From Siphonodentalium dalli (lineage: Eukaryota; Mollusca; Scaphopoda; Gadilida; Siphonodentaliidae), in contig CP136064.1 of assembly GCA_032622095.1 (NCBI GenBank), forward strand, positions 278,775,614 through 278,839,613: DNA of 64,000 nucleotides. The letters are read 5' to 3'. How positions within the stretch are numbered: the stretch's first letter is position 1; each line of letters opens with the position of its first letter. Shown one piece after another: positions 13,118 through 50,746 of this stretch. The translations under genes and the position numbers were made by a program. The notes under the pieces were generated by a model. The model saw nothing but the letters and a program-made list of their open reading frames with translations, made no database searches and had not been told where the DNA came from.

Positions 13118-13177
13118 TCTCATATATATTTTGAAGACCTCTGTCTGTATGTATGTTTGTTTGTTTGTTTGTTTGTT

Positions 13178-13209
<32 letters not shown>

Positions 13210-13690
13210 ATTAATACAAATCTACGATTCTCGACCGATCGGGACGAAACTTGGTACGTGTGTGTAGTTTGACCAGGCGGTGAACGTTGTCGTATTGGCG
13301 AGCCCGTGCGGCGCCCGCTTCGCGCATGCGCAGACGAGATCTCGGAAACGGGTGGAGCTATCGACTTGAAATTTGCTATGTGAATGTATCTTGCCCCGGA
13401 TACGAATTTTATCGGGTCGCCGAGCCCGTGCGACACCAGCTTCGCGCATGCGCAGACGAGATCTCGGAAACGGGTGGAGCTATCGACTTGAAATTTGCTA
13501 TGTGAATGTATCTTGGCCCGAATACGAATTTTATCGGGTCGCCGAGCCCATGCGACGCCAGCTTCGCGCATGCGCAGACCAGATCTCGGAAACGGGTAGA
13601 GCTATCGACTTGAAATTTCGGGCTGGGTAGAGCTATCGACTTGAAATTTGGTTTTTGAATAGCCCGTACAACGTCGGGCTCATCGGCTAG
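13118..13690 (+). mobile_element. Helitron-like non-autonomous element A
   Basis: The 5' end is TCTCATATATATTTTGAAG, preceded by A. It is followed by a TTTG/TCTG microsatellite, then tandem copies of a 122-bp unit (the TTCGCGCATGCGCAG anchor at 13319, 13441 and 13563). The 3' end has a short hairpin (AGCCCG..CGGGCT), then CATCGGCTAG. A TC start, a hairpin about 10 bp before a CTAG end, no terminal inverted repeats and no target duplication are Helitron hallmarks. Microsatellite plus tandem core resembles bivalve pearl/HINE elements. No Rep/helicase gene is present. Confidence 0.75.
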
Positions 13691-14207
13691 TCTCATATAT
13701 ATTTTGAAGACCTCTGTCTGTCTGTCTGTTTGTTTGTCTGTCTGTCATTAATACAAATCTACGATTCTCGACCGATCGGGACGAAACTTGGTACGTGTGT
13801 GTAGTTTGACCAGGCGGTCGTCATTGTCGTATTGGCGAGCCCGTGCGACGCCCGTGCAGCGCATGCGCAGACGAGATCTCGGAAACGGGTGGAGCTATCG
13901 ACTTGAAATTTGGTATGTGAATGTATCTTGCCCCGGATACGAATTTTATCGGGTCGCCGAGCCCGTGCGACGCCAGCTTCGCGCATGCGCAGACGAGATC
14001 TCGGAAACGGGTGGAGCTATCGACTTGAAATTTGGTATGTGAATGTATCTTGCCCCGGATACGAATTTTATCGGGTCGCCGAGCCCGTGCGCAGACCAGA
14101 TCTCGGAAACGGGTGGAGCAATCGACTTGAAATTTGGTTTTTGAATAGCTATCGACTTGAAATTTGGTTTTTGAATAGCTCGGACAACGTCGGGATCATC
14201 GGCTAGT
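13691..14207 (+). mobile_element. Helitron-like non-autonomous element B
   Basis: It starts directly after element A's CTAG with the same TCTCATATATATTTT end, a TCTG microsatellite and further copies of the 122-bp core (GCGCATGCGCAGAC anchors near 13860 and 13980, with a shortened one near 14090). It ends with a hairpin (GCTCGG..CGGGATC) and CATCGGCTAG. A and B are close relatives; the last unit carries a small duplication of ATCGACTTGAAATTTGGTTT. Confidence 0.75.
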
Positions 14208-14944
14208 CTCATATATATTTTGAAGACCTCTGTCTGTGAAGATCTGTGTGTGTGTGTGTGTCTGTCTGTCTGTAATCGATGGACTCGAAAACGGCCGAGC
14301 CGATTTCGATGAAACTTGGTATGTGGGGGTATTTTCGGCCGGAGAGTGACATAGGCCTATTAATTTGCCCGTGCGACGTGGCCTTGACCTTGAAATCGGG
14401 TAATTTCAAGGTCAAACGCCCGAATATCACGGGATTTCGATGAAACTTGGTATGTGGGGGTACCTTCGGTCGGGGAGTGGCATAAACCTATTAATTTGCC
14501 CGTGCGACGTGACCTTGACCTTGAACTTGGGTCATTTCAAGGTCAAACGCCCGAATATAACGAGATTTCGATGAAACTTGGTATGTGTGGGTACTTTCGG
14601 CTGGGGAGTCTCATAAGCCTATTCATTTGCCCGTGCGGTCAATTCAAGGTCAAATCGCGAATTTTGATGGGATTTCGACGAAATTTGATACGTGGGATTA
14701 CTTTTGTCCACTGAGTGTTTTGGGCGGGTCGAGTCGTGACCCCGACCTGACCTTGACCTTCAAAATGATCAATTCGAGGTCAAATCGGGTTAAACCGGAT
14801 GGATTTTGACGGGTACTTTTGTCGGGTACTTTTGTCCGGGCAGTGTTTTGGACGGGTCACCTGACCCACCTGACCCACCTGACCTTGGCCTTCAAAATGG
14901 ACAATTCAAGGTCAAAGCCCGGACGAAGTCGGGTTACCTTCTAG
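14208..14944 (+). mobile_element. Helitron-like non-autonomous element C
   Basis: The 5' end is identical to A and B and is followed by a TG/TCTG microsatellite. The core has a different repeat of about 132 bp, with GATTTCGATGAAACTTGG near 14304, 14437 and 14569. Each unit carries TGACCTTGACCTT and TTCAAGGTCAAA. The 3' end has a CCCGGACGAAGTCGGG hairpin followed by TTACCTTCTAG. The element is thus a chimera: the 5' end of the A/B family on a different core. Confidence 0.75.
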
Positions 14945-15533
14945 TCTATTATATATTTTGGAAGATATGTGTCTGTGTGTGTCTGTGTGTGTGTGTCTGT
15001 CTGTAATCGATGGACTCGAAAATGGCCCAGCCGATTTCGATGAAACTTGGTATGTGGGGGTGTTTTCGTCCGTGCGACGTCACCTTGACCTTGAAATCGG
15101 GTCATTTCAAGGTCAAACGCCCGAATATCACGGGATTTCGATGAAACTTGGTATGTGGGGGTACTTTCTTATGGCGAGTCTCATATTCATATTCATTTGC
15201 CCGTGCGACGTGACCTTGACCTTAAAATCTGGTAACTTCAAGGTCAAATCGCCAATTTTGATGGGATTTCGACGAAATTTGATACGTGGGGTTACTTTTG
15301 TCCACTGATTGTTTTGGACGGTTCCAATCGTGACCCCGACCAGACCTTGACCTTCAAAATGATCAATTCAAGGTCAAATCGGGTAAAACCGGATGGATTT
15401 CGACGGGCACGTTTGTCGGGTTCTTTTGTCCGGGCAGTGTTTTGGACTGGTCAAATCGTGACCCCACTTGACCATGACCTTCAAAATGGACAATTCAAGG
15501 TCAAAGCCCGGACGAAGTCGGGTCACCTTCTAG
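14945..15533 (+). mobile_element. Helitron-like non-autonomous element D
   Basis: It begins TCTATTATATATTTTGG directly after C's CTAG, then a TG/TCTG microsatellite and the same 132-bp core family. It ends with the CCCGGACGAAGTCGGG hairpin, CACCTTCTAG. It is very similar to C in the core and 3' end. Confidence 0.75.
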
Positions 15534-16052
15534 TCTACTATATAATTTGAGACTTCCGTATATATGTGGGTACTTCATAGAATCTAAAACGCGTGTAGGA
15601 ACGGGCATCCCCACGGCAATGTCGGCTTATAAGACGTCTTTACTACACATGACAACCGGGTCTCTTCTATATATGTACCAAAATGACGCCGCATTGGTGA
15701 CTGGGAAATTCCAAGGAATGCCGATTGAGCTCAAACTTGCTACCTACGGGAAGTGTCATATATATGAGTATGTCCTTTATAGACTCGAACCGATTGAGCT
15801 CAAACTTGCTAAATACGGGAAGTGTCATGGACGGGTTCATTGAAAACAAAAAAAAGGGTAAAATTGAAAAACAAAATTAAAAAGGCACAATTAACTCATT
15901 GAAAAACCAAAACATCGCGTAAAATTTAAAAACAAAAACAAAAAAATTAACTCATTGAAAAACAAAAAATTAAATTAATTAAAAAAATTAATTAAAACTT
16001 AAAAATTGTCCCGTTTCTGACTATTGCCACCAGTGGCGGGCTAACCTGCTAG
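15534..16052 (+). mobile_element. Helitron-like non-autonomous element E
   Basis: It starts TCTACTATATAATTTGAG directly after D. Inside are two copies of a segment containing CCGATTGAGCTCAAACTTGC (15722 and 15790). An A-rich low-complexity stretch (15842-16010) follows. It ends with a GCCACCAGTGGC hairpin and CTAACCTGCTAG, then T. The ends fit the A-D pattern but the interior is unrelated, so it is the least certain of the five. Confidence 0.6.
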
Positions 16053-23572: not shown

Positions 23573-25880
23573 TTAATCGTTGTTATCCAACTTAAAGTTA
23601 ATCAATCGTATCAACGAGCAAAGTCTACGTAAAAAAGTTACGTCATTCAAATTTAGTATGTCGTCTAAGATATCAATAGTCGCATTTTGTATACTTGTAA
23701 ATTGTCGGGGCATAAGACGATTTCTAGCCTCGATTAAACATTCACATTCCATCAAGTAGTGCATTTCATCTCCAAGTTGACGTTTATTACACAGGGGACA
23801 CAATCTTCGAAGAACAGAGGTGTCGTTCCATCGGCCTGTCTCTATTGGCAGGCGATGATTACTCGTGCGGAATTGACAGAGTGTTATTCTATTCTTGGTA
23901 TCCAAGCAATCCAAATATGTTTCGAAATTTATGTAATGTTTGAAAATTTTATATGTGTTGCCTCTGCTAGATTGTTCAATATCAGACAACCAGGTTGTAC
24001 GAAATTGATTATTTAAACTGCACTTGAGGTATGACATTAATGTTTCTGGACATGTGATATTTTCCATGTTCCAAAGATGAATCTGTCCACAATTTGTTAG
24101 GATGGTCTTTATTTTTTCCATCCACTGGAATTTTACTGTTGAAACTTCACATACTTTTATGGCTAGTAAATACAAAGTCTTACAAAATCTGCTCTGATTC
24201 ATATTCTTAATTTTCATCCAATATTTCATAATACGCAGGTTGATTGTATATTCAATGGGCAATCTCCCACTCTCACCATATAACATAAAATTTGGGGTGG
24301 ATGATTTCAAATGTAGAACTTGCCTTATAAATTTTCTGTGCATAACTTCAAATATATCATTATTTCCTGATCCCCATACCTCACAGCAATACAACATGAC
24401 TGGCAAAACTTGGGTATCAAATAATTCAAACATGTTTTAACTGACAAGCAATGTGTTCTAGATTTTGAGATTATTGAATACATCGCCTTAGTTGCTTTAT
24501 TCATCAAAGTTTTTTTTTATCCGAGTACGAGCCTGATTTTGTATGTACAATTCCAAGATAGTTAAAGTTCTTGACAACTTCAATTGTTTGTCCATTGTAT
24601 GTAAATATTCTATTTTTAGGCAAGCTTCTTTTAGAAATCAGCATTATTTTGGTTTTTTCAATGTTAACACTTAACTTCCACTTCTCACCGTACTTTTGAA
24701 AACTATTAAGTGCTTTCTGTAGATTTAACGGTGTTTCAGCCATAAGTACGGTGTCGTCTGCATATAAAATAATAAATAATTTGACATATGTCTGCAAATT
24801 GGTCTCTATATCCTTTGACATTTTTGACAAACCCCGAACGCCATTCTTATTGGGAAAATCTTCCAGGTCATTGAGGTAAAGTGAGAACAGTAGGGGTGAT
24901 AGGTTTTCACCTTGTCGTACTCCAGACAAACATGGGAAACAATCGGATGTTGTATTGCCCAAACGAACCTTTGATTTGATGTTTGTGTACATATTTCCAA
25001 TAACCGTGAGTAGTTTTCCATTTATATCATTGTTAATGAGTTTGTGCCATAGCCCTTTCCTCCACACCTTATCAAATGCTTTCTCAAAATCAATAAATGC
25101 ACAATACATATTCCTATTTAATGCCTTTGAAATTGGCGTTAACATATGTAAAACAAAAATATTATCAGTTGTGGAATAACCCTTTCTGAAACCCGCCTGG
25201 TTCTCACAGAGAACTTCTCTTTCTTCAACGTAAGAATATAACCTGTTAGAAAGAATCTTTGTAAACAATTTGCCGAAGCAGCTTAAAAGCGTGATAGGTC
25301 TGTAGTTTTTTGGATCTTCCTTATTACCCTTTTTCTTATAGAGCGGGATGATAGTTCCAATTCCCCATATATGTGGTACACAACCTGATTCGAAGACTAA
25401 ATTAAATGTTTTACAATATATATTATGTCGATAAGGGTGTCAGAGGATGCCTTGATATATTCGTTTATAATTCCATCTTCTCCAGGGGACTTATTGTTCT
25501 TTAAACTTTTGATAGCTAACACGACTTCTTCTTTGCTTATTGGTCGGTTTGGTTCGTCGTTTGTATTACTTGTCTCAATGAGCATAGGTATATCTGAGTC
25601 ATCTGTGATAGATTCAGAATTTGTCTATTTCAACTGGGTTATTACATGTTATATCTCGCTTATTAAGTGTAGACCAGAATTTCCTTGAATTTTCTATTTT
25701 TAGTTTAGATAGTTCATGTGTGATATTCTCCCTATGTATTGCAATTGCGTTGTCCATTTCTCGCTTGTATCTCCTACTCATTTCACGCATCATTTTTCTT
25801 GAACTATTGTTTTGCTTCAGTCTATGATATCGCTTGGCTTGAAGCAGACGGCAATTCTTTACGGTAACGTTTCAACCTCG
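23573..25880 (-). pseudogene. LINE (non-LTR retrotransposon) ORF2 remnant: reverse transcriptase and C-terminal zinc knuckle
   Basis: Reverse transcriptase of a non-LTR retrotransposon, which copies its own RNA into DNA at a nicked target. In order on the minus strand: a charged linker (25880-25625); the RT start with KNNKSPGEDGI (about 25490); NYRPITLLSCFGKLFTK (about 25290); AFIDFEKAFDKVW (about 25080); SGVRQGENLSPLLFSLYLND (about 24900); the catalytic ILYADDTVLMAE (about 24760); then the thumb region and a C-terminal CPLC...H...C knuckle near 23790. No endonuclease domain precedes it, so it is 5' truncated. Lesions are a stop near 25620, a frameshift near 25410, one at the poly-T run near 24510, and one near 24430. 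Likely Jockey/CR1-type; I cannot place the clade by eye. Confidence 0.88.
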
Positions 25881-49855: not shown

Positions 49856-50247
49856 TCGATTATACATTTTGGAACACCTGTCTGTATGTATGTGTGTATG
49901 CATGAATGCATGTGTGTATGTGTTATAGACTCTAACACTGCTCGACTGATCCGACTCGGATTTGGTATTTAACGTGTCAACTTTACCTCGCTCATAGGCA
50001 TGTTTCTGGACCTTGACCGATCCGACTAAAAATTTGTGTGTAGGACTACTTCGATCCCGGGAGCAATATGGACGGGTCCAATTTCACGTGGGACCATGTT
50101 CTCGAACGTGCTGATGTAGGCATGTTTCTGGACTAATTGAACAATAGTTTGGCCAGACGCTGTATATACTGGGTACTGTCCAGATGGAGGCGATCACAAA
50201 AAAAAAAATCCCTAAATAGCCCGAACGAAGTCGAGTACATCAGCTAG
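49856..50247 (+). mobile_element. Helitron-like non-autonomous element F
   Basis: Starts TCGATTATACATTTTGG after A, then TCTG/TATG microsatellite. The core has CGACTGATCCGACTCGG and GCATGTTTCTGGAC twice (49998 and 50129). Ends with an imperfect CCCGAACGAAGTCGAG hairpin and TACATCAGCTAG followed by T. Same architecture as elements A-E. Confidence 0.7.
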
Positions 50248-50746
50248 TTTAATATATATTTTGGACATTTGTCTGTCTGTTTGTCTGTTAGCTATGGCCG
50301 GGAAAACTGCCGGACAGATTGGACGAAATTTGATACCTAGGGGAAATTATTTCCAGGGAGTATTTTGGACGGGTCAAATCTTGATCCCGACCTGACTTTG
50401 ACATTCAAAAAGATCAATTCAGGGTCAAATCTGGTAAAACGGAAGTATTTCAACGAAATATAATACCTACTGTTACTTTTGTCCCAGGAGTATTTCGGGT
50501 GGGTCAAATTATGACCCTGACCTGATCTTGACATTCAAAATTGTCAATTCAAGGTCAAATCGGGTAAAGCCGGGCGGATTTCGACGGGTACTTTTGTCGT
50601 GACTTTTGTCCGGGGAGTGTTTTGGACGGGTCAAATCGTGACCCGACATGACGTTCACCTTTAAAATGGTCAATTCAAGGTTAAATCGCGCAATTCTCCG
50701 AAAATCAGAGGGGAACATCCCGGACGAAGTAGGGTCCACCAGCTAC
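50248..50746 (+). mobile_element. Helitron-like non-autonomous element G
   Basis: It follows F's CTAG directly, beginning TTTAATATATATTTTGGAC (TT instead of TC). After a TCTG/TTTG microsatellite, the core is of the C/D type with GGTCAAATC.TGA.CC and TTCAAGGTCAAA repeats. It ends with a CCCGGACGAAGTAGGG hairpin and CACCAGCTAC (CTAC instead of CTAG). Terminal decay suggests it is older than C and D. Confidence 0.65.

What the first reader, a model, noticed from the sequence alone, without database searches (positions are those of the whole stretch)
13118..16052. Five Helitron-like elements joined head to tail with no gap
Every internal junction reads CTAG directly followed by TCT, so the 3' terminus of one element abuts the 5' TC of the next. 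The ends are shared while the cores differ (122-bp core in A and B; 132-bp core in C and D; unrelated core in E). Elements F and G at 49856-50746 have the same zero-gap junction. This could come from rolling-circle read-through producing concatemers, or from repeated insertion into the CTAG/T end of a resident copy. Different cores argue for the second, or for end-swapping between families.
Basis: partly seen in the sequence, partly recalled or inferred. Interest (0 to 1): 0.75.

Follow-up and report, generated by a model that had tools for sequence, protein, structure and literature searches.

The report
Helitrons stacking onto other Helitrons' heads
In this large genome, jumping genes called Helitrons sit nose to tail in arrays thousands of times over, apparently because new copies often land exactly at the front end of an older copy; this bears on an old dispute about how such arrays form.

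Summary
The array is real. A-E (13118-16052) have canonical Helitron ends: TC start, 3' CTAG (hairpin before it in four of five), zero-gap joins, host A before A and T after E. It is a genome-wide pattern. Of 16,426 exact family-1 5' ends in this 2.2-Gb genome, 8,207 follow CTAG directly and 7,593 follow A. An autonomous RepHel element with the same ends exists (1,650-aa ORF), itself in a zero-gap array.

Copies of one element do not explain most arrays: 0 of 47 abutting pairs are near-identical. AT-richness does not explain the exact site: family 1 sits at the D-type 5' boundary 1,798 times, while any CTAG end at the internal A^T four bases inside occurs once.

Family 1 lies 5' of the older D family 1,798 times, the reverse 304 times. 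In 30 such loci young copies join different old copies.

Best reading: RepHel uses a resident Helitron's 5' end (A|TC) as a preferred target, so arrays grow 5'-ward. Tandem Helitrons were known in bats, maize and fungi; I found neither this scale nor this direction in my searches. Rolling-circle dimers and recombination also contribute.

The parts
13118..13690 (+). Element A, family-1 non-autonomous Helitron; preceded by host A; 2.6 copies of a 122-bp core unit; 91% identical to the first 461 bp and 94% to the last 33 bp of a RepHel element elsewhere in the genome
13691..14206 (+). Element B, family 1; 5' TC directly on CTAG of A
14207..14944 (+). Element C, chimera: about 31 bases of family-1 5' end on a D-type body and D-type 3' end
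14945..15533 (+). Element D, D-type Helitron (5' TCTATTATATATTTTGG, 3' ACCTTCTAG)
15534..16052 (+). Element E, E-type Helitron (3' end GGCGGGCTAACCTGCTAG); followed by host T
13687..13694 (+). Junction A/B, CTAG|TCTC
14203..14210 (+). Junction B/C, CTAG|TCTC
14941..14948 (+). Junction C/D, CTAG|TCTA
15530..15537 (+). Junction D/E, CTAG|TCTA
49856..50247 (+). Element F, Helitron-like, preceded by host A
50248..50746 (+). Element G, Helitron-like with D-type internal similarity; starts TTTAATATAT directly on CTAG of F; ends CTAC (CTAG expected)

Best explanation
These are canonical Helitrons, mostly short non-autonomous ones, mobilised by RepHel transposases of elements with the same ends. A new copy preferentially inserts exactly at the 5' boundary of a resident Helitron, between the host A and the element's TC. 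I infer that RepHel recognises and nicks the resident 5' end just as it does to start transposition, and that the incoming strand is joined into that nick: its TC to the host A, its CTAG to the resident TC. The boundary A^T is regenerated in front of the newcomer, while the older element now follows G (CTAG|TC) and is no longer an A^T target, so arrays grow at the 5' side and the order of elements approximates the order of arrival. Shown: exact joins, their genome-wide frequency, mixed composition, family polarity and the RepHel partner. Inferred: the biochemistry, and that the 5' end itself is what is recognised.
For: Frequency: 8,207 of 16,426 exact family-1 5' ends directly follow CTAG; 7,593 follow A, the normal Helitron target. 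Among the first 100 listed family-1 3' ends, 36 are followed by a family-1 5' end, 26 by another Helitron-like 5' end, 4 by odd/internal Helitron ends, 34 by host-like DNA. Exactness: CTAG inside the 5' AT tract of family 1 gives 144 matches (reversed control 37), of which 1 of the 100 listed fits an internal A^T site (by eye); at the D-type end the internal A^T (TCTA^T) has 1 match against 1,798 at the boundary, although a weight matrix of 20 unique solo 3' flanks scores the D internal site better (top 1.4-4% of window A^T sites against 14-24%). Independence: 0 of 47 abutting family-1 pairs in 31 loci are near-identical (>=98% over >=95%), 3 of 47 have the same length within 2%; 2 of 10,731 cross-locus junction pairs match at >=97% on both sides. 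Polarity: 1->D 1,798, D->1 304. In 30 1->D loci the D parts are 85.6% (19 loci) and 88.6% (11 loci) alike pairwise, their family-1 left neighbours 94.3% and 93.3%; no pair of loci is alike on both sides at >=97%. Where the D 3' end was seen, it ended the array in 8 of 11 loci. Orientation: head-to-head joins at the boundary 0 of 100 listed non-CTAG 5' flanks (by eye). Partner: an intact 1,650-aa RepHel ORF (PF14214, PIF1, PHSH, YxxxY) in an 8,571-bp element with family-1 ends.
Against: Within family 1 the age gradient is weak: right neighbour older in 36 pairs, left in 27, tie 10, p about 0.10; the earlier, smaller set gave 14 against 15. Array mates are somewhat more alike than shuffled ones (mean 0.735 against 0.701, p 0.0006; nearest relative is an array mate in 9 of 83, 2.5 expected), so some local duplication or conversion occurs. 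The RepHel pair (99.9%) and the 518-bp pair beside it (5 differences) look like dimers. D->1 is not rare (304, though 17 of the 100 listed lie in one cluster on C2). The E family does not respect one exact start: of 100 listed, 36 joins begin TACT, 31 TCTATACT, 14 TCTACT, and others carry more TCTA units. The weight matrix rests on 20 sites and left out TC-starting flanks; without its first four positions the family-1 boundary and internal site score alike. No clean empty site was found. Sampled loci were hand-picked from listings that begin at C1.
Confidence: 0.66

Rival explanations
1. Rolling-circle read-through: the 3' terminator is skipped on a circular or tandem template and a concatemer is inserted; arrays are multimers of one element.
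For: C2:141789928-141808110 reads [518][518][8,571 RepHel][8,576 RepHel] with zero gaps; the RepHel pair is 99.9% identical and the 518-bp pair differs at 5 sites. Helraiser forms circles with precise CTAG|TC junctions (PMC4778049, passages). Array mates show a small excess of similarity.
Against: 0 of 47 abutting pairs near-identical, 3 of 47 equal in length; junctions between different families with different ages; strong polarity between families.
Confidence: 0.15
2. Plain target preference: Helitrons choose A^T sites with AT-rich DNA downstream, and Helitron 5' ends happen to offer such a site.
For: Host-like 3' flanks are strongly AT-rich, as reported for Helraiser, most strongly on the 3' side (PMC4778049, passages); the 5' ends carry ATATATATTTT.
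Against: Equally or more AT-rich A^T sites a few bases inside the same ends are almost unused: 1 against 1,798 at D; 1 of 100 listed at family 1. No head-to-head join in 100 listed flanks.
Confidence: 0.1
3. Insertion at the resident's 3' end (CTAG^T), new copy on the 3' side.
For: It gives the same joined sequence; an adjacent maize pair was once read this way as one of two options (PMC2267711, passages). D->1 joins exist (304).
Against: It needs a non-canonical G^T target; older families lie on the 3' side, not the 5' side.
Confidence: 0.05
4. Recombination: circles or arrays recombine through shared ends and cores, building and reshuffling arrays after a few founding insertions; or whole arrays are mobilised by skipping internal 3' ends.
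For: L005 and L023 are copies of one locus (97% flank and start) with 3 and 4 elements, the third of L005 joining parts of the third and fourth of L023; element C is a chimera; two two-element units recur at >=97% on both sides at different places (L035/L039, L036/L037), though L036 carries four extra bases (TCTA) at its junction.
Against: Only 2 of 10,731 cross-locus pairs recur; at 1->D loci both partners keep their own ends: the left 5' end was seen in 16 of 20 loci and is family-1 type in all 16.
Confidence: 0.04

Closest known systems
Canonical Helitrons (Helibat/Helraiser type RepHel elements)
   Same: TC start, hairpin near the 3' end, CTAG, A^T target without duplication, RepHel with PHSH, two tyrosines and a PIF1 helicase (PMC4778049 passages)
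   Different: Half of the counted 5' ends of one family sit on another Helitron's 3' end
Head-to-tail tandem Helitrons in the bat Myotis lucifugus (Pritham and Feschotte 2007, seen only as cited in PMC2267711 and PMC5148889)
   Same: Perfect CTAG|TC joins
   Different: Several cases there, read as rolling-circle tandem repeats; here thousands, mostly of unlike neighbours
Two adjacent maize Helitrons in the r1 region (PMC2267711, passages)
   Same: G/T joint of two dissimilar elements; the authors already considered insertion at the A^T formed by host A and the resident's T
   Different: One case, order of insertion left open; here a genome-wide polarity
Fusarium/Metarhizium Helitrons (PMC5148889, passages)
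   Different: Isolated cases, non-canonical elements
Centromeric Helitron arrays of plants (Xiong et al. 2016, seen only as described in PMC12628747)
   Same: Tandem Helitrons
   Different: Truncated units, many 5' and a single 3' end; here sampled units keep both ends and arrays are short and mixed

Membership tests
Helitron (canonical RepHel class) | 5' TC and 3' CTRR termini | tested here: met
   A-E; genome-wide exact ends. G starts TTT and ends CTAC
Helitron (canonical RepHel class) | Short hairpin just before the 3' end | tested here: met
   Clear predicted hairpins at the A, C, D and E 3' ends; weak in B and F, shifted in G
Helitron (canonical RepHel class) | Insertion between A and T without target duplication | tested here: met
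   7,593 of the 8,219 family-1 5' ends that do not follow CTAG follow A; 3' ends followed by T in 98 of 100 listed; no paired empty site found
Helitron (canonical RepHel class) | Autonomous partner with Rep (HUH, two Tyr) and PIF1 helicase sharing the ends | tested here: met
   L048, C2: 1,650-aa ORF, PF14214 and PIF1, PHSH and YVCKY, same 5' 22-mer and 3' end
Helitron (canonical RepHel class) | Transposition by rolling circle, circle intermediates | not testable with these tools
   needs an assay
Rolling-circle concatemer array | Adjacent units near-identical copies of one element | tested here: not met
   0 of 47 abutting pairs; exception: the C2 RepHel array
Helentron/HINE | Terminal inverted repeats and T-T target | not tested
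   The A^T target and TC/CTAG ends make it unlikely; definition recalled, not from a call

The most novel reading that the evidence does not exclude
RepHel uses the 5' end of a resident Helitron, even of another family, as a sequence-specific acceptor site. Helitrons thereby become site-specific transposons of each other, and each array is a one-way, self-renewing target whose order records the order of family activity, a stratigraphic record of transposition.
Probability: 0.5. Interest if true: 0.75.

Novelty: new variant of a known kind. Interest (0 to 1): 0.6.

Why it matters
Precise Helitron tandems have been attributed to rolling-circle concatemers in bats and to consecutive insertion of unresolved order in maize (PMC2267711). 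A genome with more than 8,000 such junctions for one family's ends lets the two be separated by counting, and the counts favour directional insertion at the resident's 5' end. If right, it suggests a concrete biochemical property of RepHel (its own start site as acceptor), offers relative dating of Helitron families from array order, and gives a route from transposon to satellite-like array.

Tried and rejected
1) Target mimicry: I expected the 5' end to fit the solo-insertion consensus. The matrix (20 unique host-like 3' flanks; 12 of 32 flanks dropped as near-duplicates; all TC-starting flanks left out) did not rank it high, and the internal sites are unused. 2) Within-family age gradient: no significant result. 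3) Empty sites: joined flanks of 16 arrays against all fetched loci and the window gave five spanning hits, two of them to the same locus; I take none as an empty site (flank similarity running into element ends). 4) Composite amplification as the main cause: 2 of 10,731 pairs. 5) Ends of three other RepHel loci (L045-L047): no family-1 ends; L046 has a different CTAG end, L047 begins behind an E-type 3' end; not pursued. 6) The organism was not identified; no search was made for it. 7) The silkworm paper cited for tandem arrays has no 'tandem' or 'head-to-tail' in its main text.

Sampling: L005-L034 were hand-picked from the first 100 rows (all on C1), L035-L044 from the best matches to element A, L049-L068 are 20 of the 100 rows listed, L069-L078 the first 10. 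In one search, 30 of the 39 D-type 5' ends were used; dropped: L011, L019, L064, the second D of L065, L069, L073, L075, L078 and the window's D.

Full report
WHAT IS THERE. Positions 13118-16052 hold five head-to-tail elements with no base between them. A and B (family 1) are 90.6% alike over 513 columns; C has a family-1 5' end on a D-type body; C and D bodies are 85.5% alike over 470 columns; E gave no match to A-D at E <= 1e-3. The 122-bp period of A and B and a 131-bp period of C were found.

GENOME-WIDE FREQUENCY. The window lies in an unnamed 2.23-Gb eukaryotic genome in nine contigs. The exact 22-base family-1 5' end occurs 16,426 times. Preceded directly by CTAG: 8,207. Preceded by A: 7,593. 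That leaves 626. The reversed control patterns gave 0. Of the first 100 listed exact family-1 3' ends (13,331 matches, H required at the 17th base after CTAG), 36 are followed by a family-1 5' end, 26 by another Helitron-like 5' end, 4 by odd or internal Helitron ends and 34 by host-like DNA. So the window array is one of thousands.

THE PARTNER. PF14214 matches 151 places, 150 of 457 candidates having been scored. Of four RepHel loci fetched with their surroundings, one (L048) has family-1 ends. Read with its neighbours, C2:141789928-141808110 is a zero-gap array of four: 518, 518, 8,571 and 8,576 bp, host A in front, T behind. Both long elements carry an intact 1,650-aa ORF, two residues apart, with Helitron_like_N and PIF1 domains, PHSH and YxxxY. 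Window A matches the first 461 bp (91%) and last 33 bp (94%) of this element, so A and B look like deletion derivatives.

COPIES OF ONE ANOTHER OR INDEPENDENT ARRIVALS? In 31 loci (L005-L034 and the window) 86 family-1 elements form 47 abutting pairs. None is near-identical (>=98% over >=95% of length); 3 have equal length within 2%. An element's closest relative in the sample is an array mate in 9 of 83 cases (2.5 expected), and the mean similarity of neighbours is a little above shuffled order (0.735 against 0.701, p 0.0006). Most neighbours are thus unrelated draws from the family, with a minority of local copying. Across 148 junctions in 71 loci, 2 of 10,731 cross-locus pairs are >=97% alike on both sides; these may be two-element units that moved together, though one of them differs by four bases at the junction.

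WHY EXACTLY THE BOUNDARY? Helitrons insert at A^T. A resident element preceded by A offers A^TC at its front; an insertion there yields CTAG|TC with no gap and leaves a new A^TC in front of the newcomer. Family-1 and D-type 5' ends hold further A^T sites a few bases inside. They are nearly unused: at D, 1 match inside against 1,798 family-1 insertions at the boundary; at family 1, 144 matches inside the tract (reversed control 37), of which 1 of the 100 listed fits an internal A^T (read by eye; most of the others look like variants of the end itself). A matrix from 20 unique host-like 3' flanks puts the D internal site in the top 1.4-4% of window A^T sites and the D boundary in the top 14-24%; for family 1 the boundary lies in the top 25%, 15% or 3.5% depending on the positions used, the internal site in the top 1-4%. 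AT-richness therefore does not single out the boundary; recognition of the element's 5' end would. Head-to-head joins at the boundary were not seen among the 100 listed non-CTAG 5' flanks (by eye; in the 71 typed into no flank has G at -2). The E family is looser: its joins begin TACT (36 of 100 listed), TCTATACT (31), TCTACT (14), or carry further TCTA units.

DIRECTION. If new copies enter at the front, older families should lie on the 3' side. Family-1 3' end directly followed by the D 5' end: 1,798. D 3' end followed by the family-1 5' end: 304, 17 of the 100 listed from one C2 cluster. The two patterns are not perfectly matched (D contributes 21 letters to the first and 10 to the second), which if anything disfavours the larger count. 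In 30 1->D loci the D parts are 85.6% (D1, 19 loci) and 88.6% (D2, 11 loci) alike pairwise; the family-1 parts directly left of them are 94.3% and 93.3% alike. One D pair exceeds 97%, and its left neighbours are 89.7% alike. So young copies stand in front of different old copies again and again. Of the 20 1->D loci fetched for this, the D 3' end was visible in 11; 8 of these end the array, 2 are followed by an E-type start and 1 by another D. Within family 1, which is young (median about 2% from consensus), the gradient is in the expected direction but not significant: right older 36, left older 27, tie 10, p about 0.10.

WHAT ELSE HAPPENS. Loci L005 and L023 share flanks (97%) and hold arrays of three and four elements, the third of one combining parts of the third and fourth of the other: homologous recombination edits arrays. 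The C2 RepHel array with two near-identical pairs is what read-through or immediate self-insertion would give; assembly error is not excluded.

MECHANISM. Shown: exact joins, frequency, mixed composition, young-before-old polarity, intact RepHel with the same ends. Inferred: RepHel opens the resident A|TC by its normal first step, and the incoming copy is joined there. Helraiser acts on precise CTAG|TC junctions as circles (PMC4778049 and PMC5876387, passages), so the enzyme handles this joint.

WHAT IS KNOWN. Passages seen: PMC2267711 reports one maize pair with the same G/T joint, argues for consecutive insertion, and says the order is not clear; it cites Pritham and Feschotte for bat tandems read as rolling-circle repeats. 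PMC5148889 offers insertion into the 5' end or rolling circle for a fungal triple. PMC5876387 cites tandem arrays in plants and bats as support for rolling circle. PMC12628747 summarises Xiong et al. on truncated centromeric arrays and McGurk and Barbash on dimers formed by insertion-site preference. The original papers of Pritham and Feschotte, Xiong, and McGurk and Barbash were not read. In the full-text searches I found no report of this frequency or of a tested 5'-ward polarity; subscription papers are mostly outside that library.

VERDICT. Real Helitrons, real tandem organisation, a known kind of arrangement at a scale that lets its origin be tested; the evidence favours insertion at the resident's 5' end over concatemers.

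Noticed in passing
G000 C2:141789928-141808110 (L079, L048, L080): Two 99.9% identical RepHel Helitrons (intact 1,650-aa ORFs, two residues apart) in zero-gap tandem behind two 518-bp derivatives; looks recent.
   Followed up: partly
E-type 5' ends, e.g. L014 2429, L069 1409; listing: Ladder of TCTA units between CTAG and TACTATATATTTTGAGAC (0 to 3 units), as if the start nick can shift between A^T sites.
   Followed up: partly
window 14207-14240: Element C carries a family-1 5' end on a D-type body: a natural 5'-end swap.
   Followed up: partly
L073 about 130-175; L055 about 250-270: D-type 5' ends in inverted orientation next to a Helitron start; in L073 two D-type 5' ends face each other two bases apart.
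   Followed up: no
G000 C2:103.71-103.80 Mb: Cluster of 17 listed D->1 junctions within about 90 kb, perhaps a higher-order repeat built from Helitrons.
   Followed up: no
G000 C1:31736875-31757835: About 23 family-1 junctions in 21 kb with partly repeated spacing, suggesting a higher-order repeat.
   Followed up: no
L042 and L057 5' flanks; C1:20439779: Family-1 insertions at the same place in related host sequences (about 85% alike), a possible repeat-borne hotspot.
   Followed up: no
window 24504-25268 and 23573-24433 (-): ORFs that look like pieces of a LINE reverse transcriptase; read by eye, no family search made.
   Followed up: no
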